Assembly (NCBI RefSeq): GCF_017654505.1
Contig: NC_054540.1
Location: 37,567,554-37,631,553, forward strand
Direction: 5' to 3'
Length of the DNA stretch: 64,000 nucleotides
From: Polyodon spathula
Lineage: Eukaryota; Chordata; Actinopteri; Acipenseriformes; Polyodontidae
Made by a program: the position numbers and the translations under genes. Below the pieces are notes generated by a model. That model was not told the DNA's origin, ran no database searches, and saw only the letters and a program-made list of their open reading frames with translations. Positions 27,428 to 53,117 of this stretch are shown here, in pieces (within the stretch, counting starts at the first letter, position 1; each line of letters opens with the position of its first letter).

Positions 27428-27748
27428 TTATAACAGGTCGTCTTTTATGGCCTTATAGAGGTTTACAAAGGACTCGGCCCAAACCTCTTTCTGGTGCCCT
27501 GTGACCTGTGCTAGCTTGTACGCTGTATAAACAATTGTCAGAACAGTCCGCTCAAACTCTTCCTTGCATAGCATCCCCTTGTGTTGTGAGAGGTTATAGG
27601 TCAGACGCCGTATATCGGTAATCTTTTTGGGGGTCACGTCTTCCCAGATCACCTCCAGTTTCTTGGTTTTTCTGAGTGAAGACAGCTCTTCATCTTTAAC
27701 TAAGACTTTACTGTGAGTCTTATCCATCTCAAGGCCAGCCAAAAGTAT
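27428..27748 (-). CDS. fam180a: FAM180-family protein, last coding exon (complete copy)
   Basis: On the - strand the acceptor tttgttttcag precedes ATA CTT TTG, giving ILLAGLEMDK. KDEELSSLRKTKKLEVIWED, ITDIRRLTYNL, EEFERTVLTIVYTAYKLAQ and SFVNLYKAIKDDLL then TAA follow. The LAGLE...LKDEELASLR and DFERTVLTLAYTAYR blocks are those of the FAM180 family, small secreted vertebrate proteins of unknown biochemical role. The exon is phase 0 and continues in frame from the exon at 60788-60885 (ending LLYE). About 106 residues are encoded, so this is most of the mature protein. The frame is intact. A second, gap-truncated copy lies at 39464-39774. FAM180A rather than FAM180B is chosen because of the SLC23A4-like neighbour; that choice is inference. 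Confidence 0.85.
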   Translation of the reverse strand: MLLAGLEMDKTHSKVLVKDEELSSLRKTKKLEVIWEDVTPKKITDIRRLTYNLSQHKGMLCKEEFERTVLTIVYTAYKLAQVTGHQKEVWAESFVNLYKAIKDDLL

Positions 27749-29060
27749 CTGAAAACAAAAGCAAATCATTATCTGAATGAGTTCCAGGGTGATAGAGCCA
27801 TGAAGACAGTACATCCTTTTTAGAGGAAGCACATACCATTATTAACCCTTAGCAATCCATTTATTCAGCGCTTGTCAGGCGCATCAGGTCCAATTTATTT
27901 TCACACACTCTGTTTAAATATATATTTTGTCAGAGTAAAACAGGTTTAAAAGGCCCTGCATAGCAAAAGGCCATCAGTACTGCTTCTCCAGCCAAGCCCC
28001 ACCCCTTGTTTGCTGCATTTTTTACATACTACTTTACAGACGTGCATACTGATAAATCCTCTCCTGATCACTTGTTTTATCACCAAACTCCTCAATAATG
28101 TGATCCAAGTCATTATTTTATTAGTATAACATCTCAAAAAGCTCTGCAAATGTCAGTGGTGCAGAAGCAGCTATCTCTTTTGTTTATGACCATGTTATCT
28201 CTGTCGTGCAGAGGTTATGTGTATTGCTCAGATACACCCTTTTTTCCGGCTTCATTCAGCTCCTATCGGTCTCACTCGGCCATTGAAAGGTTCTCTGCTT
28301 TTTCCGGAGAAAAAAACGACTACAGACCTGTGCTTTACATCTTTTTGATGTGTCGGATTGGAAAGGGAAAATTGTAATGTTGGATCTGGTCTGACATAGG
28401 ACCGCAAAAGTTTAACTTCTGTAAAGGAAATAAATGATTCAGGCAGGGAACACCAGCAAAGACAGTTAGGTAACTGTCCTGTACCCATGCCAACAATTGT
28501 CGCTAACAAAATAGATGATTATAAAATGAACTGTGCTTTTAACCACTTTGCATTTGGAGGGAAACTTCCCCTGGAAGGAAAAATTGTCCCCACCCCTTCC
28601 CCTGGCTTCTTTCCTGTCAATAACCAGTCAACCGCTCCCCGTATTGAATGACATTCATTCAGCTGGTAACATGCTTTAACCCAGAAAATACTGCTGGGCT
28701 GAAATGACCAAGATGGTAAAGCAGTAACAGACTGTCGGAAGCCAAGGCAAGCAAACTGATGGGGGGGGATTGAAAGAAAAAAATACTTCATATGATGTTT
28801 GCACCACTGAGGAATGAAACAATATAATTAATTAAATTTACATCATTATGAAAATCAATCCATTATCCTAGGCATGCCCAACAACATTTAAAATACAATA
28901 TTCATAATTATGTCAACATTAAAAAAATACTGTTGAGACATACCAATATACTGAACCTATTATAAATTTCATATTGGAAAACAAAATACAGAAACTACTC
29001 CCTATAAGCCATCCTACAGTAATTTTGTACATAAGAAATTTCAAATTAGAGGGCACAGAT
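27749..29060. other. FAM180 intron sequence, no further gene (copy 1)
   Basis: The stretch is intronic for the - strand gene. Open frames at 28252-28509 and 28519-28791 (-) are conserved between the two block copies only because the whole block is duplicated, and neither has a known motif. Confidence 0.5.
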
Positions 29061-29068
29061 TGATTCCT

Positions 29069-30235
29069 TCATTGAGACCAATGGGTTCTGAAGTTTGGAG
29101 GGCAAATACACAATATGCTGCTCTCCATAATAATAAATGTATTAGATTGCCATCTCGAGTTGGTAAAGTAACTTTCTCCACCCCCACAAATCATAGAGTG
29201 TGGGGATGATCCATGACCAGCTGTTTTACAGGGTTTAGCTATTGCATAGTCTTGATTTTGATTCCTGATAGCTGCTTTATGTTCAGAGATCCTTACTTTC
29301 AGGATTCTTTTCGTTTGACCTACAGTATATAGACCAGTCTGCATGGACAAGTTAGCATATAAATTACTCCTGTAGTATTAGAGTTAATAAAGCCCTTAAT
29401 TTTCTTTTTGCCTGATCTTGGATGTTTAAAAGTTTTGGCATTTATTGTGTTTGAACACACCACCCACATTTAAAATTACCATCTGGAGGATTAGATAACC
29501 ATGTAGTGGTTTTGTCCAGTTTTGGACTGAATGAATGAACCAATCTGCCCCTAATATTCTTTTTACTTTTGAAGGCAAAATAAGGTTGTTCTTCTATTAT
29601 TGAATTCAGAGATGTGTCACTTCTTAATATCTGCTAGTATTTTAAAACTACCCCTTCATGTCATTAGACAAATAATTCAATTCAGAGGTGAAACACATAA
29701 TTGAATTACTGTTTGTATTTTCTGATCACATTATTTGGCTTTGTACATTGATTCTTTAAGGTGATAAATTTAGAGTACATTTCATCCAATTTAATCTTAA
29801 ATTGTAATTCTGTACCACAATTCCTTATTACTCTTAATAATTGACTTGTATATTTCTTATAAGCAAATGAAGATGTTGACTTTTTGCTAAAAGCAATGAA
29901 TTCCGATCCATTGGTTTGTTGAATACAGCAGTTTGAAGGGTTTATTCTCCCCTTTCGAGATCCAAAAAACTGTATCCTATCTAGATCAAATTCACATTTA
30001 CATATTAAATTACTATTTACAGAATTAATGTACATCACAAATTGATCTTTTGTGCTCGACCATATTTTATTTTTAAATAGAAATTAGCCAAGTCAATACC
30101 TGTATTTGGTATGTTTGTAAACAAACCGGTGACATCAAATGTAACTAAAAAATTGGAGGGGATTACTTTCATATCATTTAATAGGGCAGAATGTGGTGTA
30201 ATAATATCATCACCCTGTTCATCATATTGCTGCAC
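29069..30235 (-). mobile_element. Penelope-like element remnant (copy 1)
   Basis: On the - strand the order is RT then GIY-YIG endonuclease, the defining layout of Penelope-like elements. RT pieces read NFLVTFDVTGLFTNIPNTGI (30235-30035, compare the family LDVxSLYTNIP) and WSSTKDQFVMYINSVNSN, EFDLDRIQFF (30038-29706). The endonuclease reads GLYTVGQTKR and LKVRISEHKAAIR (29350-29069). The central part of the RT with the catalytic YxDD box is missing between the first two pieces, so it is a deletion derivative. The 5' side stops exactly where LTR sequence begins (30233). Confidence 0.85.
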
Positions 30236-30758
30236 GGGATATAAATGGGTCTGTGTAGCACGAGTGATTTAAAATATATAGCGTATTTAGGCACAGGGAT
30301 TGCACTTCACTTCACATGCATTTAAAGTACGTAATAATATGTGAGCACGGGATTGCAAAATTAGTTCACATGCTGGGATTCAAATGAATAATTAATAACT
30401 GAATCCCAGCACAACAGTATATATAGATGCACATTTCACTCGCTCAGGGTTGGGTGTTTGGTGAGTAAAGAATGGATGAGAGGAGAGAAAGATAACGTAA
30501 ACTAATAATTAACCATTGCTATTTTGTGCTTGAAGGACCAACACGATACTTATTTGTTTAGACTCACAGTGTTTGTTTGTTTGTCTGTCTGTTAGTCCAT
30601 TTTGTTTGTCTGTTTATTTTGGCCTCAAGTGCTTTGTGCTGTTTTTGTTTAAACCTTTTATTTTTTTCATTTATTAAAGTGCGCAACAGCACAATTCACA
30701 TTTCACCTCACAGCACTGTGTTTCTTCCATGTCTGACGTCATCACTAGTCTTGTCACA
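30233..30758 (+). mobile_element. 5'-truncated LTR (copy 1)
   Basis: It starts cacgggatataaatgggtctg and ends cttgtcaca, and includes a TATA box (agtatatatagatgc near 30416) and a late attaaag. It aligns with the - strand LTR at 56735-57144 (shared words include gtatttaggcac, ggattgcac and gggatataaa). The first ~100 bases of that LTR (tgtggcaaagtgccc onward) are missing here. Confidence 0.75.
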
Positions 30759-30929
30759 GAGAGACATTCACTTCTTGCTCCTGTGAGCTTCGTAATTTCT
30801 CCAAAAGTACTAATTTTTAAGGGTAATAAACATATTATTTAAAATCATAAACTTTGTAGAAAATTGAAATACCGGTGCTACAAAGATGCTTCAGGTCAAT
30901 TAAACACACACGAGGTGCTTTTTATATAT

Positions 30930-30930
<1 letters not shown>

Positions 30931-30975
<45 letters not shown>
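30931..30975 (+). repeat. (GATA)n microsatellite (copy 1)
   Basis: About eleven gata units. The copy-2 counterpart at about 42995-43050 has an interrupted array, a clear length difference between the block copies. Confidence 0.95.
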
Positions 30976-30976
<1 letters not shown>

Positions 30977-31189
30977 TATATAGACCCTTAAATGATGCTT
31001 TCCGAGTAGTCTGGGAGGAACAGTGGACTCAGGATTTGGTGGTCTCACACTGTCCCTGTGGATATTATTTCATATCACAAAACCACAATATCATTTGTTA
31101 CAATGGGCAATCTTTCTGTAGGCCTGGTGAATAGCAGGGGTTGTTCACATGGCAGAGCTGTGAGGGGAGCCTCCAATCTGCTGTTAAGT

Positions 31190-31617
31190 TGTGTAACAGG
31201 TTGATTTGAGATGGATGACGTCAGGCCAGGAAGCAGAATACAAACACCGGACTGCATTGCAAAACTGTGTGGCTGTGCAGTATATTCATTTAACACATAA
31301 CTTATACAAAAGAAAATGGCTTGCAGGCCAAAATAAACAAACAAACACAAACAAACAAAGGATTTGAGTACCTTCAGGGTGGTTTAGTAAATAGAAATCA
31401 TTTTGTTTCTTTGCAGTTTACATGCAACACACCTCTCTCCAACTCAGACTCGCACACGGAGAGCGAGACCTTATATAGCAGGTGGTCAGGAGCTAATGAG
31501 GCAATTTATCCCCTGACCACCTGCATTCCACATGTGAAGGCAGGGAGAGAGTTAACCCTCTCCCTGCTGAATCAACATAATATTAAATAGTGGACGGCTT
31601 TCGTCTGCCCGCATACA
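31190..31617 (-). mobile_element. LTR-like unit, - strand (copy 1)
   Basis: On the - strand it runs from tgtatgcgggcagacg to ctgttacaca (TG...CA). It has a TATA box (gctatataaggtctcg near 31470) and the words tgtttgtttattttggcctgc that also occur in the LTR at 30233-30758. No matching 5-bp flanks were found, so the ends are approximate. Confidence 0.6.
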
Positions 31618-32200
31618 TTTAAACAAAAGGTCTTTTCGCTGTCATATTTGGAATACATAAGCTAGTATCATGTCTATATAAGTTTGAAAAATACCTGTCA
31701 GTGTTATTCAACCTGATAATAACACTCCGAAATAAACAAACTACATTTTAATAAGAGAAAGTGGAAAACCAATGCCCTTAACCCTAACCAAATAGGAAGT
31801 ACAAAATGTACAAACAGTGAAATGAAAATGAAGGAAGAACACAACACTATGGGTCCCAGAGCTTTATTAAGATTTACAGACCAGACAGTTTAAATTTACT
31901 GCAGCTCTTCTTCATATAATCTCCCACATCCACCCAAAGGCATATGGAGGTCTAGGTACTGCCCCTTCCTCAAGTTTATGTGGGAGGGTCCCAGTGGAAC
32001 TTTTTTGAAAAAAAAAAAAGTGATTAAAATGGTGCATTCTGGTACATTATTGCATGGTTTAACCATGTGGTAGACTATTAGTGGTCTGCTTATAGTGTCT
32101 GACAAAGTACTCCATTAGTGCAATGAAGGAGCTTTACTTCTGCAATGCTCACAGCAAGGCAAGACCAGGAAGAAGAAAAATGGACTTTGTGCATCAAGAA
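31618..32200. other. No gene recognised (copy 1)
   Basis: AT-rich sequence. A - strand frame at 31896-32105 includes a poly-T-encoded Phe run and has no motif. Confidence 0.45.
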
Positions 32201-32300
32201 GGGATGGGTTGGTATACCGGTTTTTTGATTTACCGTGGTTTAGGTACATTACGGTATTAATACTGTTCCTTTTATTCTACACCGATTATCGTAATTCCTT
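32201..32300 (+). repeat. hAT-like terminal sequence, left (copy 1)
   Basis: The sequence gggatgggttggtat, followed by accggttttttgatttaccg, is the kind of end seen in fish hAT MITEs. An inverted partner, gggatgggacggtat on the - strand, lies at 36563-36577 (13 of 15 bases equal). Confidence 0.5.
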
Positions 32301-32904
32301 TATACAGCAGTTTTTTCAACAGGAAACACGCTTCTTCTAAATCAAGCAACGGTACTTGCAGCCTTAGCAAAGTGTCTGAGGAACATCTTTTTGTGAACTG
32401 ATACTCTATTTTGATGGTTTTGAAAGAAACTGTCAACGACACAGAATACACGCTTCAATTGCTGCGTTCTGTTACCCAGAGCTTGCTACTCTTGGCTGCT
32501 GACTTTCTGACGTCACGTGCAGCTTTTAGAAATGCCTTCTCCAACCTTGCAGCACAGAACACATTTTGAACGTGGTCTGTTTACATTTGTCTATATTATC
32601 AACAGTCAGTTTAATGTAATTGATTAACATTAACTTTATTGTAAAATTATTCATCACTTATCACAGATTTAGTTTGTTTAAATAATTAATTTATTTATTT
32701 AATGTAGCGTTGACAAGGTTGTTCACCGCATCATGGTATAATGATAAAATGTCGTTCGTTTTCGCAATTAGGCCAGTCTTGTTAAGCATCAAGCAAACAG
32801 GCACAATTGGAAAGATGCTGGGGCCCAAGATTCACACAATTCTTGCTTCTGACTTGGTGCCTTTTTTTGATTGCTTGGCTCCACTTTATCACTCCACTTG
32901 AAAT

Positions 32905-33031
32905 GCTCTTTGTTTGACTTGAAGTGACTGAGACTCACACACACTGAGACACACACATTGAGACTGTGTGTTGTAGTGTGTGTGTTTCTCAGTGTGTGTG
33001 TGTCTCAGTCACTTCAAGTCAAACAAAGAGC
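32905..33031. repeat. Long hairpin (inverted repeat) beside helicase remnant (copy 1)
   Basis: A left arm of about 53 bases (gctctttgtttgacttgaag onward) pairs with the right arm ending caagtcaaacaaagagc, with two mismatches visible. The inner arms are CA/TG repeats with a loop of about 20 bases. The helicase frame on the - strand ends within the right arm. Confidence 0.9.
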
Positions 33032-33581
33032 AAAAAGTTGATAAGGTGGACACCACTTAAGGATTTAACTCTGGAAAGTGCAACGAAACTTTGTCCATTG
33101 GAGGAAATGGAGTTACTAGGACCCATCCTAACTGTTTTTAGAGTCTTACCCTGACATTTGTGAATGGTGATTGAATGAGCACCAATGACTGAGAACTGCT
33201 CTCTAACAATGTAGACCCTGTCCATGATTTCAAACATTCAAAGTTATGGGTGACTCCATTGTTAAATGAGATGGTTATGGTTTTGACCATACTTATGTTT
33301 TACAGATAGTAAGAAACAGCTTGAAGCTTCCCTAATGCCCCATTGATGAGACCACTGGCAATGTCAATGTTCTTGCAAAGCACCAGTTTGCAGCCAGTTT
33401 GCAGTTTGCAGGCTATTTTGACTCGTATGGTAGTTTCCAGTCCAGCAGTACGACTGCATTCAACCTTCATTTTTTTCAGCACATTTCTCTGGAAGTTACA
33501 AGGGCAATCCACAGTCCATAAGATGAATGTCCTCTCCAGGCATATAATGAAGCACGACGGTCTGGATCTGGTTACAGGCAT
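33019..33581 (-). pseudogene. PIF1-type helicase, C-terminal remnant (copy 1)
   Basis: Two - strand frames in succession read KLQTGCKLVLCKNIDIASGL with INGALGKL (33300-33581), and then VIGAHSITIHKCQGKTLKT with NGQSFVALSRVKSL (33019-33237). These are the OB-insert/NxDxxxGLxNG region and superfamily-1 helicase motifs V (TIHKxQG) and VI (GQxxVALSRV), as in PIF1 helicases. The Walker A and B regions are not present. A stop-rich 60-bp stretch separates the two pieces. PIF1-like helicases occur both as host genes and as parts of Helitrons and other mobile elements. The fragment lies among repeats and beside a hairpin, so a mobile origin is more likely. Confidence 0.75.
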
Positions 33582-33599
33582 CTACAGTAGGCATGACGC

Positions 33600-34540
33600 A
33601 GGTTGAGCCCTCGGGATGAAATAGCTAGGTGGCTATTTTTTTAATTAGCAGTTGGAGGAAACCACTTCAAGTACAGTAGAATCTGCCAGAATTGATGGAC
33701 ACTGTATCTACTATATTTACTAATGAGAGCAAAACAAATACAAAAGAAAAACAAGGGAAACACAGATCTTTTCTAGAAAGCTGTGAGTGTTTGTATAAAT
33801 GGATTTTATATTTTTAAATGCTGCAATAACAGTTCTGCTTCACACTATAATTTGACAGAAAAGGTGATTTATTTGCACTGTGCAGAACCTTATTTTCTCC
33901 CATTGGTGCTTGAGCCCCGCAGCATTCAGGGAATTGCCGCCTGTGCACCTATTATCAGTGATTAAAGGCTGGTTTTCAAACAAACTAATTATCGCTTACC
34001 AATACTGTATTGGTATAAGAAAAGTGTGTTTTTAAAAAAGTAATTTCAGCTTTCAATCACTTAAAATATGCTGAAGATAACGTAAACAACACCAAGCTAC
34101 AGACAGGGAGTCCCAAGCTTTAAACGTGTTACTGTTTATAAATAAGAACTCAACTTTATTATGAATATTGTGTTATTATGTTTTAAGCAACATAGTACGA
34201 TAGTGTTCATTATGGTAATTGTTTGTTTATTAGTTGTAAAATTATTAGTAAAACGTGACCTATTGTTTGACCTCATTAATACAACCGACCCCCTTTGCTA
34301 AAAACATCTTCAGTCAGGGTTATAACCAAGTATAAATCTCCACAATTTTGTAAAATGACTTCACACTAAGTCTGGTGTATAATGAGTTATGGAAAGAAAC
34401 GATCATTTGAGTTGTATTTAACGTGGTGTATATAGTGTTTTGAGTACAAATGACACTGAACATCAGAAAGTAGGCACTGATGAATGATCCTACTTTTAGC
34501 TCAGTTTTGGTGCAAATAGCATATATCACGTTTTGCATCT
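33600..34540. other. No gene recognised (copy 1)
   Basis: AT-rich sequence conserved with copy 2 (about 45840-46785). No motif is seen. Confidence 0.45.
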
Positions 34541-34544
34541 AAAA

Positions 34545-34545
<1 letters not shown>

Positions 34546-34608
<63 letters not shown>
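34546..34608. repeat. (TA)n microsatellite (copy 1)
   Basis: TA array with one interruption. Copy 2 at 46786-46868 is longer and has two interruptions. Confidence 0.95.
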
Positions 34609-35479
34609 TCCTGATTGTGGAGCTGCATTTGTGCCATAGAAAAATGTGAGAAACATCATCCGTGCGTGCGTGTGTCCATCTGCCTGCAGTTATTGTTCTT
34701 ATACAATTCTACATTTATGCAACATACAGCGCTGTGAACATGGTATATGTTTTCTGCACTCTTAAAGTGGTCCGTCAGCCCCATCGACTCACTCATATGT
34801 GTTTGTGGGTTGCTTTGATCTCCCTATGAGATATTCAGATACAAATAAGCCCTGTATAAAGCTAATTTGATACGAACCATATGCAAAGCTTGAAATGTAC
34901 GCATGTTTTCAGTACCAAACAATAATAATGATAAAGTGTCTTCGAATTCAATGAGATAACTCCTCCTTGTCTGTGCCAATATTTTCTTTACTGTTAAACC
35001 TATAATATGACATCAGGTGTGTTATTCTATTTATTATTTATTAAACTTAACCCTGTTACTTTGATTATTAAGTGGCTTACCTAATATAAAAATCGAGGAG
35101 TTAACAACAAATAAACAATTTATTTGTATGTGTGTGTTTTGGTTCAGCGCAGAAACAGGGAGTCACAGGTTTACATTTGGTTACAGTCAATGAGACATAA
35201 ACACATAAAATTCCACTAACCTATTCAGTGCACTGATACCCACAGTAAGCCTTACCATTGGAAGAACAATTACATTCAGAGCTTCACTTGTTTAGACTGT
35301 CTCCAACTTGCATCTGTCCCTGATAATTATTTCTTAATTTTATTTAGAACTTTACAGCAAAATTGCCCTTTGAATAATTCTAAAATAAAACCTAACAAAA
35401 TGATACTGCTTACTGGAATCAGTCTATGTAACCTATACTTTACATAACAACACAAAACATTTGCAAATAATCATATAAC

Positions 35480-35511
<32 letters not shown>

Positions 35512-35572
35512 ACTCCACAGATGCTGCAAGCAATGGATCTCTAGTATCTCGTTGTATAACTAAATCTCGACA
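34609..35572. other. No gene recognised; includes (AATA)n (copy 1)
   Basis: AT-rich sequence with an aaataaat array at about 35480-35512. No coding or RNA-gene signal. Confidence 0.45.
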
Positions 35573-35622
35573 GTTTCCGACAAGTTTTTCTAACTTGTAT
35601 GAGGAACTACCATTCCTCTTAA
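35573..35622 (+). repeat. 50-bp direct repeat, left member (copy 1)
   Basis: The sequence acaagtttttctaacttgta, followed by gaggaactaccattcctct, recurs in the same orientation at about 36463-36512. The first 20 bases are themselves a small palindrome. Confidence 0.85.
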
Positions 35623-36462
35623 TAATATATATATATATATTTTTACATAAAACTTGTACTTTTTACATAGGTATATACATGTCAATTGCTATGGATAAAC
35701 GCATCAGCCAAATCAATAACTACGATGTGTACTTTTCTAGTTACTATTTCTTAATTGATTTATACATTTATAATACTGTAGAGAGCACGAGAATTATTGG
35801 AGACACACACAAAAGATCTTGCATTTAATGCAGTTTATTATGCGGCTACAGCAAATCAGCACCATCCACACACAAACCCACATAGACACAGACAGCCCTT
35901 CCCCACCCTAGAGCACTACTCTGCCTCTCAAGGTGACATCCACATATTACACAAATAACACCGGAAGGGTAATAACAGTTACAAGGTAATGCATTTAACA
36001 ATATTGGAACTTAACAATAACTAATAATGAAACACAACGATAATAATTCAGCTTTCCCCTACCATATTTCTCACTCCCAGCATCCTCAGCTACACATTAA
36101 CCTATGTAGAAAACTGGCTCTGAGTATGGCACTCCATAGGTGGCTCTGCCCAGAGCACTACATTCTACCAAACACCCTTACACTTTCCTAGTTTCCAAAC
36201 TGAAAGCCAGAAATCTCCAACAGGAAATATAGCAGTTCTAGAATGTGAGCAGACAGTTGTTCAAAACCACAGTAACAATCAATTTTATTAGAGTTGACCC
36301 TTATTTGGTAAAAGAGGTGTTTTTTTTTTTCACATTTGATGTAAGAAAGTTTCAGACTTTTGGTACTAATACAGATGGTAATTCTAAGTGATTTAGTTTT
36401 GCCGCTGCAACATGATGAAAACAGCAAAACTCTTGGAGCTGTATAGAGACTCACGGTAGTTT
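35623..36462. other. Segment between 50-bp direct repeats (copy 1)
   Basis: About 840 bp, AT-rich, with no recognised gene. It may be an insertion whose flanks are the direct repeats. Confidence 0.4.
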
Positions 36463-36512
36463 CAAACAAGTTTTTCTAACTTGTACGAGGAACTACCATT
36501 CCTCTCAATATT
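36463..36512 (+). repeat. 50-bp direct repeat, right member (copy 1)
   Basis: Second copy of the 35573-35622 sequence, followed by ttaagattaccacagtattt, which also occurs in reverse at about 53420-53450. Confidence 0.85.
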
Positions 36513-36580
36513 AAGATTACCACAGTATTTTTTTTTAACGGTCGTCATACCATGCAAATTTCATACCGTCCCATCCCTAA
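36513..36580 (-). repeat. hAT-like terminal sequence, right (copy 1)
   Basis: On the - strand this reads agggatgggacggtatgaaa then tttgcatggtatgacgaccg and an A run. A related copy in the + sense is at 53376-53480. Confidence 0.55.
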
Positions 36581-36582
36581 TA

Positions 36583-36955
36583 CCTAATGATTTCACCTCT
36601 ACAACATGATGTGGTTAACTCATCCCTTTCTGTATAAGGATCCCAATGATTTCACCTCTAGAACATGGCCTGGTTAACTCATCCCTTTTTTTATAAAGAT
36701 CCCAATGATTTCACCTCTAGAACATGGCCTGGTGAACTCATCCCTTTTTTTATAAGGATCCCAATGATTTCACCTCTAGAACATGGCCTGGTTAACTCAT
36801 CCCTTTTTTTATCCCCAATGATTTCACCTGTACAATATGGTCTAGTTAAGTCATATGTTTCTGTATAAGAATCCCAATGATTTCACCTCTACAACATGGC
36901 CTGGTTAACCCACCCATTCCTGTATAAGGATCCCAATGATTTCACCTCTACAACA
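36583..36955 (+). repeat. 59-bp minisatellite, left part (copy 1)
   Basis: The unit acatggcctggttaactcat followed by ccctttctgtataaggatcc and caatgatttcacctctaca repeats about six times with variants. The array continues after the LINE at 52572-53040. Confidence 0.93.
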
Positions 36956-38963
36956 TTGTTGTTGTTGGGGACTCCATGTTGAGAAACACAGCAAGTTCAG
37001 TTCACAGTTTGGACCCCTTTACTACAACAGTGTGCTGCCTTCCAGAAGCCTCCGTCACACGCATCACTGAGAACGTGGACAGGCTCCTAAAACGAACAGG
37101 AGACGACCCGGTAGTAGTGTCCACATTGGTACAAACAACCCCCCCCCCCCCATTGGAAGAGACAGACCAAAATCCCTGCAAAACAAATTCAGAGAGCTAG
37201 AAAGGTAATTAAAAGAGAAGACCAAAACTGTGGTATTTTCTGGTATACTACCGGCACCTTGCAAAGGACCATATGGACAGCTGGAAATAATTAATCTAAA
37301 TGCATGGCTGAAGACATGGTGCACACAGGAAGGCTTCACCTATCTTGATCATTGGACCACATTCTACAACAAGGAATATCTGTATAGACGGGACGGACTG
37401 CACTTAAATAAAAAGGGAACCAGTCTACTTGGAGAAAAGATCCTCGAGCAGGTTCAGAAGCATTTAAACTAGAAAGGAAGGGGGGAGAAATCAACAAAAA
37501 AACAGAAAGGAGACCACATCAAAACAAGAACAACAACTCAGGTAAGAAAACCATTAAATGTGTTTATCTAAATGCTAGAAGTATCAGAAACAAAATTTTA
37601 GAACTTGAAGCTACTGCACTAAGAAGTAATTAATATGTGATAGGTGTTGCTGAAACATCGTTGTCTGAATTAAGTTGTCAAGGCTGGGGACATTAATAGT
37701 ATTCTGAATGTGATAGGTGCATTGTGAAGACTTGGCAGGTCTGAAAATGAGGGGAATAGCGCTTATACTAGGAATACCCGCAATCTCTGAGGCACAGGCA
37801 GTTAATCTGTACGTCATAAAACAACAACCATCGTCTTGAAGCCCAGGTGTTAAATCTGTCAATATACGGGTCAGAATAACAGACAAAAATTCAAAGGGCA
37901 TAATAATAGGAGCATGCTATAGACCTCCAGATTCAGACGGCGAGCAAAATAATCTGTTATACAATGACATTAAAAATGCGTGCAGCAAAGGAGAAGCCAT
38001 ACTAACGGGGGATTTCAACTTCCCCCATATGAAATGGGAAAATCCAATGGGTAGCACGACGGATGAAATTTAAATGGTGGAAATGACAAATGACTGCTTC
38101 CTAATGCAATTTGTCAAGGCACTGAATAGGAGGGAGGCATGCCTTGATTTAGTCATTTCAAATAATGAAGACAGAATAACTAAAACAGGTCAGAGAACCA
38201 CTAGCAAACTCAGACCACAACATGGTCTCATTTTAAGTGCTTTTTAAAAATCAAAAAGTAATGACTAAAGCTAAGGTTTACAATTTTAGAAAGGGAAATT
38301 ATGAAGGTATGAAATAAAGACTAACAGAAGTAGATTGGAGTAAAATAGAGAAAACATCCACGGAAAAAGGATGGCTATTTTTTAAAAATGTAGTACTAGA
38401 GGCACAAAACAATTACAACCTAAAAGTGGACAAATCTAAATCTAAAACTAAATTGCCAGAATGGTTTAATATATCAATTAAAAAAAATATAGAACAGATT
38501 AAACAAAAAAATTCCGCAAAAGCGTACTTTACAGCCAGTGTGTGAAAAAAGGGAACAAAAACAAAGTACACAGAAAGAGTACACGGAACTGCAAATGCAA
38601 GTCAAAAAGGAAGTTTGAAAGGCCAAGAGAGAGATAGAAATGAACATTGCTAAGGGGGCTAAAACCAATTCCAAAATATTTTTTCCAATATTACAACAGC
38701 AAGAGAACATTCAAAGAGGAGGTTATATGTCTAAGAGATACAAATGGCAAAATCATTGACGAAGGAAAGAAATAGCAAATATATTAAATTATTACTTTTC
38801 ACAAGTCTTCACAAGGAGGATATGGACAACATGCCCCACATGTCAACCTGTTCCTATCCAGTTTTAAATAACTTTAGCATAACCGAGGCAGAAGTGTTAA
38901 AGGGACTAGGAGATCTTAAAATAAACAAATCCCCTGGGCTGGATGAGATCCTCCCAATAGTAC
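36956..38963 (+). mobile_element. CR1-like LINE, 5' part, cut by the gap (copy 1)
   Basis: It corresponds to 49203-51119 and stops at the N gap inside the RT region. ORF1 encodes an SGNH-type esterase end: DGLHLNKKG at about 37392-37418 has the D-x-x-H catalytic pair intact, in contrast to the other copy. Upstream, ORF1 is disrupted by a poly-C run at about 37139-37150. The endonuclease frame is broken near 37640-37900. Confidence 0.85.
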
Positions 38964-39463
38964 NNNNNNNNNNNNNNNNNNNNNNNNNNNNNNNNNNNNN
39001 NNNNNNNNNNNNNNNNNNNNNNNNNNNNNNNNNNNNNNNNNNNNNNNNNNNNNNNNNNNNNNNNNNNNNNNNNNNNNNNNNNNNNNNNNNNNNNNNNNNN
39101 NNNNNNNNNNNNNNNNNNNNNNNNNNNNNNNNNNNNNNNNNNNNNNNNNNNNNNNNNNNNNNNNNNNNNNNNNNNNNNNNNNNNNNNNNNNNNNNNNNNN
39201 NNNNNNNNNNNNNNNNNNNNNNNNNNNNNNNNNNNNNNNNNNNNNNNNNNNNNNNNNNNNNNNNNNNNNNNNNNNNNNNNNNNNNNNNNNNNNNNNNNNN
39301 NNNNNNNNNNNNNNNNNNNNNNNNNNNNNNNNNNNNNNNNNNNNNNNNNNNNNNNNNNNNNNNNNNNNNNNNNNNNNNNNNNNNNNNNNNNNNNNNNNNN
39401 NNNNNNNNNNNNNNNNNNNNNNNNNNNNNNNNNNNNNNNNNNNNNNNNNNNNNNNNNNNNNNN
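38964..39463. other. Assembly gap, 500 N
   Basis: Exactly 500 N, a conventional length for a gap of unknown size. The two sides are the end and the start of the duplicated block. Confidence 1.
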
Positions 39464-42284: not shown

Positions 42285-42805
42285 GGGATATAAATGGGTC
42301 TGTGTAGCACGAGTGATTTAAAATATATAGCGTATTTAGGCACAGGGATTGCACTTCACTTCACATGCATTTAAAGTACGTAATATGTGAGCACGGGATT
42401 GCAAAATTAGTTCACATGCTGGGATTCAAGTGAATAATTAATAACTGAATCCCAGCACAACAGTATATATAGATGCACATTTCACTCGCTCAGGGTTGGG
42501 TGTTTGGTGAGTAAAGAATGGATGAGAGGAGAGAAAGATAACGTAAACTAATAATTAACCATTGCTATTTTGTGCTTGAAGGACCAACACGATACTTATT
42601 TGTTTAGACTCACAGTGTTTGTTTGTTTGTCTGTCTGTTAGTCCATTTTGTTTGTCTATTTACTTTGGCCAAAGTGCCGTGTGCTGTTTTTGTTCAAACT
42701 TTTATTTTCTGTTTCATTTATTAAACTGCGCAACAGCACAATTCACATTTCACCTCACAGCACTGTGTTTCTTCCATGTCTGACGTCATCACTAGTCTTG
42801 TCACA
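42282..42805 (+). mobile_element. 5'-truncated LTR (copy 2)
   Basis: Counterpart of 30233-30758, with the same left truncation point against the Penelope remnant. Confidence 0.75.
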
Positions 42806-42997
42806 GAGAGACATTCACTTCTTGCTCCTGTGAGCTTCGTAATTTCTCCAAAAGTACTAATTTTTAAGGGTAATAAACATATTATTTAAAATCATAAACT
42901 TTGTAGAAAATTGAAATACCGGTGCTACAAAGATGCTTCAGGTCAATTAAACACACACTGCCCACGAAAAATAACACGAGCTTTTTAATTTATATAT

Positions 42998-43028
<31 letters not shown>

Positions 43029-43273
43029 TATAGATAGATAGATAGATATATATAGACCCTTTTAAATGAAAGGCTTCAGACTCCTCCGAGTAGTCTGGGA
43101 GGAACAGTGGACTCAGGATTTGGTGGTCTCACACTGTCCCTGTGGATATTATTTCATATCACAAAACCACAATATCATTTGTTACAATGGGCAATCTTTC
43201 TGTAGGCCTGGTGAATAGCAGGGGTTGTTCACATGGCAGAGCTGTGAGGGGAGCCTCCAATCTGCTGTTAAGT

Positions 43274-43708
43274 TGTGTAACAGGTTGATTTGAGATGGAT
43301 GACGTCAGGCCAGGAAGCAGAATACAAACACCGGACTGCATTGCAAAACTGTGTGGCTGTGCAGTATATTCATTTAACACATAACTTATACAAAAGAAAA
43401 TGGCTTGCAGGCCAAAATAAACAAACAAACACAAACAAACAAAGGATTTGAGTACCTTCAGGGTGGTTTAGTAAATAGAAATCATTTTGTTTCTTTGCAG
43501 TTTACATGCAACACACCTCTCTCCAACTCAGACTCGCACACGGAGAGCGAGACCTTATATAGCAGGTGGTCAGGAGAAAATTACTGGCAATCTTTTATCT
43601 CCTGACCACCTGCATTCCACATGTGAAGGCAGGGAGAGGAAGTTAACCCTTTCCCTGCTGAATCAACATAATATTAAATAGTGGACGGCTTTCGTCTGCC
43701 CGCATACA
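43274..43708 (-). mobile_element. LTR-like unit, - strand (copy 2)
   Basis: Counterpart of 31190-31617. A short segment differs (aaaattactggcaatctttta here against ctaatgaggcaatttat in copy 1). Confidence 0.6.
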
Positions 43709-44290
43709 TTTAAACAAAAGGTCTTTTCGCTGTCATATTTGGAATACATAAGCTAGTATCATGTCTATATAAGTTTGAAAAATACCTGTCAGTGTTATTC
43801 AACCTGATAATAACACTCCGAAATAAACAAACAACATTTTAATAAGAGAAAGTGGAAAACCAATGCCCTTAACCCTAACCAAATAGGAAGTACAAAATGT
43901 ACAAACAGTGAAATGAAAATGAAGGAAGAACACAACACTATGGGTCCCAGAGCTTTATTAAGATTTACAGACCAGACAGTTTAAATTTACTGCAGCTCTT
44001 CTTCATATAATCTCCCACATCCACCCAAAGGCATATGGAGGTCTAGGTACTGCCCCTTCCTCAAGTTTATGTGGGAGGGTCCCAGTGGAACTTTTTTGAA
44101 AAAAAAAAAAGTGATTAAAATGGTGCATTCTGGTACATTATTGCATGGTTTAACCATGTGGTAGACTATTAGTGGTCTGCTTATAGTGTCTGACAAAGTA
44201 CTCCATTAGTGCAATGAAGGAGCTTTACTTCAGCAAATGCTCACCAGCAAGGCAAGAACCATGACGAAGAAAAAATGGGACTTTGTGTGC

Positions 44291-44770
44291 ATCAAGAAGG
44301 GATGGGTTGGTATCCGGTTTTTGGATTTACCGTGTTGAAGGTACATTAACGGTATTAATACATGTTCCATTTATTCTAGCATTCCCGATTATCGTAACAA
44401 CCGATTATAACAGCATTGCTTTCCTTTATACAGCAGTTTTTTTTTTTTTTTTTTTCAACAGCAAACAAGCTTCTTCTAAATCAAGCAATGGTACTTGCAG
44501 CCTTAGCAAAGTGTCTGAGGAAGATCTTTTTTGTGAACTGATACTCCTATTTAGTGAATGTTTTGAAAGAAACTGTCCCAACGACTACAGAAGTTAACCT
44601 CGTCAATGAGCCCTGCTTTTCTGTTACCGCTAGCTTCTGCTCTTGCTGTTTTGACTTTCTGTACAACGTCAAATCTCAAAAGAACCGGCTGCTCTTGGCT
44701 GCTGACTTTCTGACGTCATGTGCAGCTTTTAGAAATGCCTTCTCCAACCTTGCAGCACAGAACACATTTT
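44291..44770 (+). repeat. hAT-like left end and following sequence, longer version (copy 2)
   Basis: This copy is longer than its partner at 32195-32575. It keeps about 100 bases missing there (caacgactacagaagttaac to ctcaaaagaaccggctgctc) and has a longer T run near 44436-44455. Confidence 0.5.
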
Positions 44771-45134
44771 GAACGTGGTCTGTTTACATTTGTCTATATT
44801 ATCAACAGTCAGTTTAATGTAATTGAATAACATTAACTTTATTGTTGTATTTAGTTTATTTATTGTTAATTTATACATCACTTATCACAGATTTAGTATA
44901 TTTGTTTAAATGTCGTTAATTTATTTATTTAATGTAGCGTTGACAAGGTTGTTCACCGCATCATGGTATAATGATAAAATGTCGTTCGTTTTCGCAATTA
45001 GGCCAGTCTTGTTAAGCATCAAGCAAACAGGCACAATTGGAAAGGTGCTGGGGCCCAAGATTCACACAATTCTTGCTTCTGACTTGGTGCCTTTTTTTGA
45101 TTGCTTGGCTCCACTTTATCACTCCACTTGAAAT

Positions 45135-45268
45135 GCTCTTTGTTTGACTTGAAGTGACTGAGACTCACACACACTGAGAGAGTCACACACTGTGTGTTGA
45201 CTGTGTGTTGTAGTGTGTGTGTTTCTCAGTGTGTGTGTGTCTCAGTCACTTCAAGTCAAACAAAGAGC
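45135..45268. repeat. Long hairpin beside helicase remnant (copy 2)
   Basis: It has the same arms as 32905-33031, with a slightly longer loop (gagagagtcacacactgtgtg region). Confidence 0.9.
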
Positions 45269-45815
45269 AAAAAGTTGATAAGGTGGACACCACTTAAGGA
45301 TTTAACTCTGGAAAGTGCAACGAAACTTTGTCCATTGGAGGAAATGGAGTTACCAAGATCCATCCTAACTGTTTTTAGAGTCATACCCTGGCATTTGTGA
45401 ATGGTGATTGCATGAGCACCAATGACTGAGAACTGCTCTCTAACAATGTAGACTCTGTCCATGATTTCAATTCAAAGTTATGGGTGACTCCATTGTTAAA
45501 TGAGATGGTTATGGTTTTGACCATACTTATGTTTTACAGATAGTAAGAAACAGCTTGAAGCTTCCCTAATGCCCCATTGATGAGACCACTGGCAATGTCA
45601 ATGTTCTTGCAAAGCACCAGTTTGCAGCCAGTTTGCAGTTTGCAGGCTATTTTGACTCGTATGGTAGTTTCCAGTCCAGCAGTACGACTGCAATCAGCCT
45701 TCATTTTTTTCAGCACATTTCTCTGGAAGTTACAAGGGCAATCCACAGTCCATAAGATGAATGTCCTCTCCAGGCATATAATGAAGCACGACGGTCTGGA
45801 TCTGGTTACAGGCAT
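45256..45815 (-). pseudogene. PIF1-type helicase, C-terminal remnant (copy 2)
   Basis: Counterpart of 33019-33581 with the same motifs (ITIHKCQGMTL, GQSFVALSRVKSL, NIDIASGLINGALG). Position 45400 keeps an alanine (GAHAITIHKC) where copy 1 has serine. Otherwise it is broken in the same way. Confidence 0.75.
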
Positions 45816-46785
45816 CTACAGTAGGCATGACGCAGGTTGAGCCCTCGGGATGAAATAGCTAGGTGGCTATTTTTTTTAATTAGCAGTTGGAGGAAACCAC
45901 TTCAAGTACAGTAGAATCTGCCAGAATTGATGGACACTGTATCTACTATATTTACTAATGAGAGCAAAACAAATACAAAAGAAAAACAAGGGAAACACAG
46001 ATCTTTTCTAGAAAGCTGGGAGACTTTGTATAAATGGATTTTATATTTTTAAATGCTGCAATAACAGTTCTGCTTGTGAAGCATCCACACTATAATTTGA
46101 CAGAACAGGTGATTTATTTGCACTGTGCAGAATCTTATTTTCTCCCATTGGTGCTTGAGCCCCGCAGCATTCAGGGAATTGCCGCCTGTGCACCTATTAT
46201 CAGTGATTAAAGGCTGGTTTTCAAACAAACTAATTATCGCTTACCAATACTGTATTGGTATAAGAAAAGTGTGTTTTTAAAAAAGTAATTTCAGCTTTCA
46301 ATCACTTAAAATATGCTGAAGATAACGTAAACAACACCAAGCTACAGACAGGGAGTCCCAAGCTTTAAATGTGTTACTGTTTATAAATAAGAACTCAACT
46401 TTATTATGAATATTGTGTTATTATGTTTTAAGCAACATAGTACGATAGTGTTCATTATGGTAATTGTTTGTTTATTAGTTGTAAAATTATTAGTAAAACG
46501 TGACCTATTGTTTGACCTCATTAATACAACCGACCCCCTTTCCTAAAAACATCTTCAGTCAGGGTTATAACCAAGTATAAATCTCCACAATTTTGTAAAA
46601 TGACTTCACACTAAGTCTGGTGTATAATGAGTTATGGAAAGAAACGATCATTTGAGTTGTATTTAACGTGGTGTATATAGTGTTTTGAGTACAAATGACA
46701 CTGAACATCAGAAAGTAGGCACTGTGAGATGAATGATCCTACTTTTAGCTCAGTTTTGGTGCAAATAGCATATATCATGTTTTGC

Positions 46786-46796
46786 ATCTATATATC

Positions 46797-46859
<63 letters not shown>

Positions 46860-46868
46860 ATATATATA
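46786..46868. repeat. (TA)n microsatellite (copy 2)
   Basis: TA array with two attat interruptions. Confidence 0.95.
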
Positions 46869-47834
46869 TCCTGATTGTGGAGCTGCATTTGTGCCATATA
46901 AAAATGTGAGAAACGTCATCCGTGTGTGTGTGTCCATCTGCCTGCAGTTATTGTTCTTATACAATTCTACATTTATGCAACATACAGCGCTGTGAACATG
47001 GTATATGTTTTCTGCACTCTTAAAGTGGTCCGTCAGCCCCATAGACTCACTCATATGTGTTTGTGGGTTGCTTTGAACTCCCTAAGAGATATTCAGATAC
47101 AAAGAAGCCCTATATAAAGCTAATTTGATACGAACCATATGCAAAGCTTGAAATGTACGCATGTTTTCAGTACCAAACAATAATAATGATAAAGTGTCTT
47201 CGAATTCAATGAGATAACTCCTCCTTGTCTGTGCCAATATTTTCTTTACTGTTAAACCTATAATATGACATCAGGTGTGTTATTCTATTTATTATTTATT
47301 AAACTTAACCCTGTTACTTTGATTATTAAGTGGCTTACCTAATATAAAAATCGAGGAGTTAACAACAAATAAACAATTTATTTGTCTGTGTGTGTTTTGG
47401 TTCAGCGCAGAAACAGGGAGTCACAGGTTTACATTTGGTTACAGTCAATGAGACATAAACACATAAAATTCCACTAACCTATTCAGTGCACTGATACCCA
47501 CAGTAAGCCTTACCATTGGAAGAACAATTACATTCAGAGCTTCACTTGTTTAGACTGTCTCCAACTTGCATCTGTCCCTGATAATTATTTCTTAATTTTA
47601 TTTAGAACTTTACAGCAAAATTGCCCTTTGAATAATTCTAAAATAAAACCTAACAAAATGATACTGCTTACTGGAATCAGTCTATGTAACCTATACTTTA
47701 CATAACAACATAAAACATTTGCAAATAATCGTATAACTTAAATAAATAAATAAATAAATAAATAAAATAAACTCCACAGATGCTGCAAGCAATGGATCTC
47801 TAGTATCTCGTTGTATAACTAAATCTCGACAGTT

Positions 47835-48760
47835 TCCGACAAGTTTTTCTAACTTGTATGAGGAACTACCGTTCCTCTTAACAAATATATATATATATAT
47901 ATATATTTTACATAAAACTTGTACTTTTTACATAGGTATATACATGTCAATTGCTATGGATAAACGCATCAGCCAAATCAATAACTACGATGTGTACTTT
48001 TCTAGTTACTATTTCTTAATTGATTTATACATTTATAATACTGTAGAGAGCACGAGAATTATTGGAGACACACACAAAAGATCTTGCATTTAATGCAGTT
48101 TATTATGCGGCTACAGCAAATCAGCACCATCCACGCACTCCTATATAGACACAGACAGCCCTTCCCCACCCCAGAGCACTAGTCTGCCTCTCAAGGTGAC
48201 ATCCACATATTACACAAATAACACAGGAAGGGTAACAACAATTACAAGGTAATGCATTTAACAATATTGGAACTTAACAATAACTAATAATGAAACACAA
48301 CGATAATAATTCAGCTTTCCCCTACCATATTTCTCACTCCCAGCATCCTCTGCTACACATTAACCTATGTAGAAAACTGGCTCTGAGTATGGCACTCCAT
48401 AGGTGGCTCTGCCCAGAGCACTACATTCTACCAAACAGGAAACCAGAAATTCTCAAACAGGAAATATAGCATTTCTAGAATGGAGCAGAAAGTTTTCAAC
48501 AAAAGTTTAACAAATCAATTTTACCTTAGTTTGACGACTTATATCTCATTGTGTAAAAGAGGTGTTTGTTTTTTTCACATTTGATGTAAGAAAGTTTCAG
48601 ACTTTTGGTACTAATACAGATGGTAATTCTAAGTGATTTAGTTTTGCCACTGCAACATGGTGAAAAACAGCAAAACTCTTGGAGCTGTGTAGAGACTCTT
48701 GGTAGTTTCAAACAAGTTTTTCTAACTTGTAAGAGGAACTACCATTCCTCTCAATATTAA
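47835..48760. repeat. Direct-repeat-bounded segment (copy 2)
   Basis: The 50-bp repeats at about 47835-47882 and 48713-48755 bound the same AT-rich segment as 35573-36512 in copy 1. A (TA)n array follows the left member. Confidence 0.7.
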
Positions 48761-48828
48761 GATTACCACAGTATTTTTTTTTAACGGTCGTCATACCATG
48801 CAAATTTCATACCGTCCCATCCCTAATA

Positions 48829-49202
48829 CCTAATGATTTCACCTCTACAACATGATGTGGTTAACTCATCCCTTTCTGTATAAGGATCTCAACGATCTCA
48901 CCTCTAGAACATGGCCTGGTTAACTCATCCCTTTTTTTATAAAGATCCCAATGATTTCACCTCTAGAACATGGCCTGGTGAACTCATCCCTTTTTTTATA
49001 AGGATCCCAATGATTTCACCTCTAGAACATGGCCTGGTTAACTCATCCCTTTTTTTATCCCCAATGATTTCACCTGTACAATATGGTCTAGTTAAGTCAT
49101 ATGTTTCTGTATAAGAATCCCAATGATTTCACCTCTACAACATGGCCTGGTTAACCCACCCATTCCTGTATAAGGATCCCAATGATTTCACCTCTACAAC
49201 AT
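48829..49202 (+). repeat. 59-bp minisatellite, left part (copy 2)
   Basis: Counterpart of 36583-36955. Confidence 0.93.
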
Positions 49203-49359
49203 TGTTGTATTGATTGTTGGGGACTCCATGTTGAGAAACACAGCAAGTTCAGTTCACAGTTTCGACCCCTTTACTACAACAGTGTGCTGCCTTCCAGAAG
49301 CCTCCGTCACACGCATCACTGAGAACGTGGACAGGCTCTAAAACGAACAGGAGACGACC

Positions 49360-49712
49360 CGGTAGTAGTTGTCCACATTGGTACAAACAACACTGGAAGA
49401 GACAGACCAAAATCCCTGCAAAACAAATTGAGAGAGCTAGAAAGGAAATTAAAAGAGAAAACCAAAACTGTGGTATTTTCTGGGATGCTGCCGGCACCTT
49501 GCAAAGGACCATATGGACAGCTGGAAATAATTAATCTAAATGCATGGCTGAAGACATGGTGCACACTGGAAGGCTTCACCTATCTTGATCACTGGAGCAC
49601 ATTCTACAACAAGGACTATCTGTATAGGCAGAACAGACAGCACAAATAAAAAGGGAACCAATCTACTTGGAGAAAAGATCCTCTCGCAGGTTCAGAAGCA
49701 TTTAAACTGGAA
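49360..49712 (+). pseudogene. LINE ORF1 SGNH esterase remnant
   Basis: VVHIGTNNTGRD, TVVFSGMLPAP and LNAWLKTWC show an SGNH/GDSL-type esterase domain, known in ORF1 of CR1-group LINEs. The C-terminal catalytic D-x-x-H is lost: the codons now read N-R-Q-H at about 49631-49642, followed by a stop. The first part of ORF1 is not recognisable. Confidence 0.7.
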
Positions 49713-49789
49713 AGGAAGGGGGGAGAAATCAACAAAAAAACAGAAGGGAGACCACATAAAAACAAGGACGACAACTCGGGTAAGACAAC

Positions 49790-50450
49790 CATTAAATTTA
49801 TTTATCTTAATGCTAGACGTATCAGAAACAATTTTAGAACTTGAAGCTACTGCATTAAGAAGTAACTATGATGTGATAGGTGTTGCTGAAACTTGGTTGT
49901 CTGAAAATGATGGGGACGAATATAGTATTCTTGGGTATACACTGCATAGGAAGACAGGCAGGACAGGCAGAGGGGTAGCGCTATACATAATAATCAGTCT
50001 TGAGGCACAGGTGTTAAATCTGGACAAAGAAAACAAAACCAAATCAATATAGGTCAGAATAACGGACAAAAATTCAAAGGGCATAATAATAGGAGCATGC
50101 TATAGACCTCCAGATTCAGACGGCGAGCAAAATAATCTGTTATACAATGACATTAAAAATGCGTGCAGCAAAGGAGAAGCCATACTAACGGGGGATTTCA
50201 ACTTCCCCCATATGAAATGGGAAAATCCGATGGGTAGCACGACGGATGAAATTTAAATGGTGGAAATGACAAATGACTGCTTCCTAATGCAATTTGTCAA
50301 GGCACTGAATAAGAGGGAGGCATGCCTTGATTTAGTCATTTCAAATAATGAAGACAGAATAACTAAAACAGGTCAGAGAACCACTAGCAAACTCAGACCA
50401 CAACATGGTCTCATTTTAAGTGCTTTTTAAAAATCAAAAAGTAATGACTA
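49790..50450 (+). pseudogene. LINE ORF2 apurinic endonuclease-like domain
   Basis: Visible motifs are ELEATALRSNYDVIGVAETW (endonuclease Glu motif), GRGVALYI, GACYRPPDSDGEQ and ILTGDFNFPHMKWE (catalytic GDFN near 50190), with ACLDLVISN near the end. A stop at 50050-50052 and another near 50255 interrupt it. The role is first-strand nicking for target-primed reverse transcription. Confidence 0.85.
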
Positions 50451-50977
50451 AAGCTAAGGTTTACAATTTTAGAAAGGGAAATTATGAAGGTATGAAATAA
50501 AGACTAACAGAAGTAGATTGGAGTAAAATAGAGAAAACATCCACGGAAAAAGGATGGCTATTTTTTAAAAATGTAGTACTAGAGGCACAAAACAATTACA
50601 ACCTAAAAGTGGACAAATCTAAATCTAAAACTAAATTGCCAGAATGGTTTAATAGAACAATTAAAAAAAAAATTCAGCAAAAAAGGTACTTTACAGTGTT
50701 GAAAAGGGATGAAAATCAAAGTACACAGAAAGAGTACACGGAACTGCAAACGCAAGTCAAAAAGAAAGTTTGAAAGGCCAAGAGAGAGATAGAAATGAAC
50801 ATTGCTAAGGGGGCTAAAACCAATTCCAAAATATTTTTTCCAATATTACAACAGCAAGAGAACATTCAAAGAGGAGGTTATATGTCTAAGAGATACAAAT
50901 GGCAAAATCATTGACGAAGGAAAGAAATAGCAAATATATTAAATTATTACTTTTCACAAGTTTTTACAAAGGAGGAT

Positions 50978-52187
50978 ATGGACAACATGCCCCACATGTC
51001 AACCTGTTCCTATCCAGTTTTAAATAACTTTAGCATAACCGAGGCAGAAGTGTTAAAGGGACTAGGAGATCTTAAAATAAACAAATCCCCTGGGCTGGAT
51101 GAGATCCTCCCAATAGTACTGAAAGAAATGAAAGAAGTTATTTACAAACCGCTAACCAAGATCATGCAACAGTCTCTTGACACAGGGGTTGTACCAACAG
51201 ACTGGAAAATTGCAAACTTAATACCAATCCACAAAAAGGGAAACAAAACTGAACCAGGTAACTATAGACCAATAACCCTGACTTCTATTTTATGAAATCT
51301 TATGGAAATTATAATAAGATCCAAAATGGAAAATTGTCTATATGTAACAGTATCCTGGGAGACAGTCAACATGTTTTTAGGAAAGGGACCTGCTTGATTT
51401 TTTTGAGGATACAACATTGACAATGGATAATTGCAAAGCATATGACATGGTTTATTTAGATTTCCAGAAAGCTTTTGACAAAGTCCTGCATAAAAGATTA
51501 ATTCTCAAACTGAATGCAGTAGGGATTCAAGGAAACGCATGTACGTGGATTATGGAGTGGTTAACATGTAGAAAACAGAAAGTACTGATTAGAGGAGAAA
51601 CCTCAAAATGGAGTGAGGTAACCAGTGGAGTACCACAGGGATCAGTATTAGGTCCTCTGCTATTCCTAATCTACATTAATGATTTAGATTCTGGTATAGT
51701 AAGCAAACTTGTTAAATTTGCAGATGACACAAAAATAGGAGGAGTGGCAAACACTGTTGCAGCAGCAAAGGTCATTCAAAATGATCTAGACAAGATTCAG
51801 AACTGGGCAGACACATGGCAAATGACATTTAATAGAGAAAAGTGTAAGGTACTGCACGCAGGAAATAAAAATGTGCATTATAAATATCATATGGGAGATA
51901 CTGAAATTGAAGAAGGAATCTATGAAAAAGACCTAGGAGTTTTTGTTGACTCAGAAATGTCTTCATCTAGACAATGTGGGGAAGCTATAAAAAAGGCCAA
52001 CAAGATGCTCGGATATATTGTGAAAAGTGTTGAATTTAAATCAAGGGAAGTAATGTTAAAACTGTACAATGCATTAGTAAGACCTCATCTTGAATATTGT
52101 GTTCAGTTCTGGTCACCTCTCTACAAAAAGGATATTGCTGCACGAGAAAGAATGAAAAGAAGAGCGACCAGATTATTCTGGGTTTAA
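50978..52187 (+). pseudogene. LINE ORF2 reverse transcriptase
   Basis: Two long open pieces (50978-51295 and 51417-52187) separated by stops and a frame change carry KINKSPGLDEILP, WKIANLIPIHKKG, NYRPITLTS, VYLDFQKAFDKV, SGVPQGSVLGPLLFLIYIND, the catalytic KFADDTKIGG (FADD at 51717-51728), EKDLGVFVDSEM and LVRPHLEYCVQFWSP. This is the CR1/L2 group of non-LTR RTs. A further ~350 bp after 52187 still shows the C-terminal frame in broken form. Confidence 0.92.
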
Positions 52188-53040: not shown

Positions 53041-53117
53041 CCAACACATTTACTAAATGTAGCTCTCAGATTGTGTTAATGAAAATATCTCAAATGCATT
53101 GAAATGTGCTTGCTGCA

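What the first reader, a model, noticed from the sequence alone, without database searches (positions are those of the whole stretch)
27438..51119. 11.5-kb direct duplication split by a 500-N gap looks like an assembly artefact
Copy 1 (27438-38963) ends exactly at the gap and copy 2 (39464-51119) begins exactly at it. The outer limits have no biological logic: one lies ten bases from the end of the FAM180 coding sequence and the other inside a LINE RT codon run. Copies differ by scattered substitutions, microsatellite lengths and short indels. That is expected of two haplotypes (or homeologous chromosomes in a polyploid fish) whose overlapping contigs were placed end to end.
Basis: partly seen in the sequence, partly recalled or inferred. 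Interest (0 to 1): 0.75.

Follow-up and report, generated by a model that had tools for sequence, protein, structure and literature searches.

The report
False duplication at a scaffold gap
An 11.5-kb stretch of a sturgeon-like fish genome, holding the last exon of one gene and part of a jumping gene, most likely appears twice because two overlapping assembly pieces were laid end to end, so it is an assembly error and not a real duplication.

Summary
One 500-N run (38964-39463) separates 27438-38963 from 39464-51119, and a single alignment joins them over their whole length: 97.8% identical over aligned bases, 94.0% with gap columns counted. The layout is the published "duplicated overlapping contigs" signature. 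The left contig stops inside a LINE that continues only in the right contig, between both halves of the minisatellite it was inserted into. The right contig starts inside FAM180A's last exon, ten bases short of its end; that end exists only in the left contig, and the preceding exon only in the right one. One refinement: the differences are not all haplotype differences. Fourteen short bursts covering 15% of columns hold 62% of difference events, with a near-random transition:transversion ratio (50:98). Outside them divergence is about 1% (0.45-1.57% by threshold), near two published sturgeon heterozygosities (0.54%, 1.12%). The closest proteins are from Acipenser. Read depth and spanning reads, which would decide the matter, could not be examined, and the genome search did not complete. 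Verdict: an ordinary artefact of a described kind.

The parts
27438..38963 (.). Copy 1: the right-hand end of contig A, overlapping the start of contig B
   Evidence: Self-BLAST; alignment
38964..39463 (.). 500-N gap, the only N run in the window
39464..51119 (.). Copy 2: the left-hand start of contig B
   Evidence: Self-BLAST; alignment
27428..27748 (-). FAM180A last exon, complete, with AG acceptor and TAA stop; 27428-27437 lie outside the copy
   Evidence: Pfam PF15173; tblastn; splice site and stop
39464..39774 (-). The same FAM180A exon in copy 2, cut by the gap ten bases short of its end; identical in what remains
60788..60885 (-). Preceding FAM180A exon, found once in the window, with AG and GT splice sites
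36586..36956 (.). 59-bp minisatellite, left half, copy 1
36957..38963 (+). LINE in copy 1, 2007 bp, cut by the gap
48832..49202 (.). 59-bp minisatellite, left half, copy 2
49203..52571 (+). LINE in contig B, 3369 bp, running through the copy limit at 51119
52572..53042 (.). 59-bp minisatellite, right half, in contig B only
37614..37870 (.). Difference burst that damages the LINE frame in copy 1 (copy 2 equivalent 49850-50053)
38456..38580 (.). Second burst that damages the LINE frame in copy 1 (copy 2 equivalent 50639-50735)
49579..49686 (.). Burst in which copy 2 lost two bases and the LINE frame (copy 1 equivalent 37339-37448)

Best explanation
The region is a false duplication. Two contigs that cover the same 11.5 kb, most likely from two haplotypes of one locus, were not merged. 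The scaffolder placed them side by side with a standard 500-N spacer. The repeat limits are simply where contig B starts (equivalent to 27438) and where contig A stops (equivalent to 51119). Shown here: the geometry, the complementary truncation of FAM180A and of the LINE, and the clustered pattern of the differences. Inferred: that the contigs are allelic, that part of the bursts are uncorrected consensus errors, and that the differences kept the contigs from merging. On this reading FAM180A has one last exon, preceded by an intron of about 21.0 kb, and not two exons with about 33 kb to the outer one.
For: The match ends on both gap edges to the base. The exon cut at the right edge is completed only in contig A, and its upstream exon lies only in contig B. 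The LINE cut at the left edge goes on only in contig B, where the other half of its minisatellite target also lies. No homology longer than 10 bases was found between the outer flanks and the unit ends that could have mediated a real duplication. Kelley and Salzberg define this layout, and 11,113 of 13,576 of their chimpanzee cases ended within 10 bp of the contig ends. Ko et al. report a gap between most false duplications. Spacers of 500 Ns are used in scaffolding. Outside bursts divergence is 0.99% (0.45-1.57% by threshold), against 0.54% and 1.12% reported for two sturgeons.
Against: No read, depth, k-mer or contact evidence was available, and the search of the window's own genome failed eight times. 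Identity is 94.0% with gap columns counted, below the 95% used by Kelley and Salzberg. The overall transition:transversion ratio (102:143) is low for natural variants, and still only 52:45 outside bursts, so the allelic share of the differences is uncertain. The complementary truncation alone would also follow from a real tandem duplication whose junction lies exactly in the gap.
Confidence: 0.84

Rival explanations
1. A false duplication of one haplotype: both contigs come from the same chromosome copy, and nearly all differences are consensus errors that blocked merging (the homotype class of Ko et al.).
For: 225 of 362 difference events lie in 1725 of 11824 columns, with substitutions 50:98 transitions to transversions, the random ratio. 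Against LINE protein P0098 copy 1 has 6 frameshifts and 5 gaps, copy 2 has 3 and 2; the 3 frameshifts of copy 2 are shared.
Against: 97 substitutions remain outside bursts, 52:45, with 15 CpG-type transitions against a random mean of 8.8 of 52 (simulated maximum 20 in 2000). Six substitution-rich bursts add up to 33:24, a grouping made after seeing the data (counts).
Confidence: 0.12
2. A real tandem segmental duplication whose junction happens to lie in the gap. The inner FAM180A exon would then lack its stop codon, and the gene would splice to the outer copy or read on into the LINE.
For: The sequence order alone is compatible with it; the copies differ by 2.16%, as an older duplication could.
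Against: It needs both contigs to stop on the junction base. No mediating homology was found. The part of the last exon that both copies share is identical (first 430 columns), although identical runs of up to 651 columns occur elsewhere, so this is weak.
Confidence: 0.03

Closest known systems
Mis-assembled duplicated overlapping contigs (DOC), Kelley and Salzberg 2010, PMC2864568 (passages and section 14 read)
   Same: Adjacent contigs that align only at their facing ends, right up to the contig ends.
   Different: Identity with gap columns counted is 94.0%, below their 95%; mate-pair consistency untested.
False duplications, heterotype or homotype, Ko et al. 2022, PMC9516828 (passages and section 7 read)
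   Same: Gap between the copies on one scaffold, signs of erroneous sequence in the copies, one gene given an apparent extra exon.
   Different: Their exon-gain count needs a whole coding exon inside the duplication; here ten bases are missing. Depth and k-mer classes untested.
True tandem segmental duplication
   Same: Two direct copies side by side.
   Different: No sequence reads through a junction between the copies, and the limits fall on the gap edges to the base.

Membership tests
Duplicated overlapping contigs (Kelley and Salzberg) | Alignment longer than 300 bp | tested here: met
   11824 columns
[quoted passage not shown]
   0 bp from both gap edges; the gap edges are taken as contig ends
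Duplicated overlapping contigs (Kelley and Salzberg) | Contigs placed adjacently | tested here: met
   Only one N run lies between them
Duplicated overlapping contigs (Kelley and Salzberg) | Identity above 95% | tested here: inconclusive
   93.99% with gap columns, 97.84% over aligned bases; they used another aligner
Duplicated overlapping contigs (Kelley and Salzberg) | Mate pairs consistent with superimposed contigs | not testable with these tools
   No reads available
False duplication (Ko et al.) | Gap between the duplicated pair | tested here: met
False duplication (Ko et al.) | Half or very low read depth and discordant read pairs | not testable with these tools
   No reads available
False duplication (Ko et al.) | Heterotype class: single-copy k-mers above the error level | not testable with these tools
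   No reads; the substitution pattern suggests a mixture
False exon gain (Ko et al.) | At least one coding exon wholly inside the false duplication | tested here: not met
   Ten bases of the FAM180A last exon lie outside
True tandem segmental duplication | Junction between copies read within one contig | tested here: not met
   The junction position is the gap itself

The most novel reading that the evidence does not exclude
A real, fairly recent tandem duplication in a sturgeon relative that gave FAM180A a second last exon and took the stop codon from the inner one, so that the gene must splice about 33 kb to the outer exon or read on into a LINE.
Probability: 0.03. Interest if true: 0.3.

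Novelty: not a real feature. Interest (0 to 1): 0.1.

Why it matters
Left uncorrected, it doubles 11.5 kb, gives FAM180A a spurious second last exon and a false 33-kb distance to the outer one, hides the heterozygosity of the locus, and can pass for a recent segmental duplication. The cut exon and the cut LINE, each completed only in the other contig, show how such an error can be recognised from sequence alone before reads are consulted.

Tried and rejected
Search of the window's own genome for a third copy: the same genome search was sent eight times and did not complete, so nothing is known about copies elsewhere. A search of phage records found no match, as expected for fish DNA. Rfam gave no match and ARAGORN no tRNA.

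A global MAFFT alignment gave 369 substitutions and 73 indels; the BLAST alignment (245 substitutions, 117 indels) was used instead because it leaves gaps rather than forcing mismatches in noisy stretches. All burst counts depend on that choice and on the burst threshold: events inside bursts range from 115 to 313 of 362 and outside divergence from 1.57% to 0.45% over thresholds 10 to 4. Alignment noise inside bursts by itself pushes transition:transversion towards random, so that ratio is not independent proof of sequencing error.

Repeat-mediated duplication: 300 bases outside each limit against 300 bases at each unit end gave only words of 8-10 bases. Species: best FAM180A hits are Acipenser (79% over 82% of the query, 85% over 73%); LINE hits are 80% over 98% to an unnamed protein and 81% over 50% to A. 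sinensis; among the 120 listed of 6292 Tc1 transposase hits the highest identity is 86%. I call it acipenseriform-like and name no species. The first FAM180A exon was not recognised in the window (the printed output was cut). The grouping of bursts into substitution-rich (33:24), indel-rich (15:69) and two others (2:5) was made after seeing them.

Full report
What is there. The window holds one N run, 38964-39463, exactly 500 bases, and one full-length direct match, 27438-38963 against 39464-51119. The match has 11824 columns, 245 mismatches and 466 gap columns: 2.16% substitutions over 11358 aligned bases. It reaches the last base before the gap and the first base after it. It is the only one of 45 off-diagonal self-matches of at least 100 columns that touches a gap edge. 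The first 430 and last 151 columns are identical.

Which genome. The minus-strand frame 27838-27431 is FAM180 (PF15173, E 3.5e-43). Of 97 related proteins the two best are from Acipenser: 79% over 82% of the query and 85% over 73%. The LINE is 81% identical to an A. sinensis protein over half the query and 80% to an unnamed protein over 98%. The window is therefore probably from a sturgeon or paddlefish relative. The species was not established.

Two truncations that complete each other. FAM180A's last exon is 27748-27428 in copy 1, with an AG acceptor and a TAA stop. In copy 2 it is 39774-39464, cut by the gap ten bases short. The preceding exon, 60885-60788, was found once, with AG and GT splice sites; 32 of 33 residues of the match equal P0001, and the odd one is read from the intron. 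The LINE tells the same story from the other side. In contig B it runs from 49203 to 52571 between two arrays of one 59-bp unit (48832-49202 and 52572-53042). The units at its two ends overlap by about five bases, as a target-site duplication would. In copy 1 the left array and 2007 bp of the LINE are present, then the gap. So contig A lacks what contig B has after 51119, and contig B lacks what contig A has before 27438.

Mechanism. Overlapping contigs laid end to end predict all of this without further assumption: the repeat begins at B's first base and ends at A's last base, wherever these fall. A real tandem duplication would show the same truncations only if both contigs stopped on the junction base. 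No homology that could have mediated one was found at the limits. Kelley and Salzberg (PMC2864568; passages, and section 14) call this layout duplicated overlapping contigs; 11,113 of 13,576 of their chimpanzee cases ended within 10 bp of the contig ends. Ko et al. (PMC9516828; passages, and section 7) found a gap between most false duplications and more erroneous k-mers inside them. Spacers of 500 Ns were used in a beetle assembly made with 3D-DNA (PMC10320752, passage) and in chicken assemblies joined by mapping (PMC10942973, passages). 3D-DNA was also used for the sterlet (PMC7269910, passages) and the Chinese sturgeon (PMC11425059, passages). Which tool made this scaffold is unknown.

What the differences are. 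The 362 difference events are strongly clustered: variance-to-mean ratio 6.48 in 100-column bins, against a maximum of 1.59 in 2000 simulations. Fourteen bursts cover 1725 of 11824 columns and hold 225 of 362 events. Their substitutions are 50 transitions and 98 transversions, the random ratio; alignment noise contributes to this. Outside them there are 97 substitutions in 9846 bases (0.99%), 52 to 45, and 15 CpG-type transitions against a random mean of 8.8. The outside figure moves between 0.45% and 1.57% with the threshold.

Which copy is damaged. A related LINE protein (P0098) polarises some bursts. Three frameshifts and four stops are shared by both copies and so belong to this LINE insertion. 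Beyond these, copy 1 has three frameshifts, two stops and five gaps; copy 2 has no frameshift, one stop and two gaps. Scores are 1501 and 1761. With P0100 and P0101 copy 1 has 7 frameshifts and copy 2 has 4, and copy 2 then shows one frameshift of its own near 49836, upstream of where P0098 begins. So the bursts at 37614-37870 and 38456-38580 damage copy 1. At 49579-49686 copy 2 lost two bases and its frame, judged from translations and the alignment; that copy 1 is the better version there also rests on a recalled motif. Damage is thus found in both contigs, more of it in copy 1. The simplest reading is about 1% real haplotype difference plus uncorrected consensus error, but private mutation or gene conversion between LINE copies is not excluded. 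Heterozygosities of 1.12% (A. sinensis) and 0.54% (A. ruthenus) are reported in PMC11425059 (passage).

Limits. No reads, depth or contact map could be consulted, and the genome search did not complete. Alleles of a diploid and homologues of a recent polyploid cannot be separated here; both count as two haplotypes in the best explanation. Same-haplotype origin is kept as a rival.

Verdict. It is an ordinary assembly artefact of a described kind, of low biological interest.

Noticed in passing
49203-52571, with arrays 48832-49202 and 52572-53042: A LINE sits inside a 59-bp minisatellite; the units on its two sides overlap by about five bases, which looks like a target-site duplication.
   Followed up: partly
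37139-37150: A run of cytosines in copy 1, 12 bases longer than in copy 2, inside the LINE frame; it may be an error or a real insertion.
   Followed up: no
27748-27428 and 39774-39464: Both copies of the FAM180A exon have tryptophan where the five relatives compared (P0001-P0004, P0007) have cysteine.
   Followed up: no
6707-9112 (+) and 11897-13644 (-): Two G+C-rich retroelement remnants in opposite orientation; Pfam names a reverse transcriptase in 6707-7267 and 12964-13287. DIRS-like by recall only.
   Followed up: no
56223-56717 (+): Remnant with an RNase H domain of a retrotransposon reverse transcriptase.
   Followed up: no
58496-59326 (+): Tc1-like transposase reading frame (Sleeping Beauty type helix-turn-helix); among named hits the highest identities are to Polyodon spathula, 82% and 78%.
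   Followed up: partly
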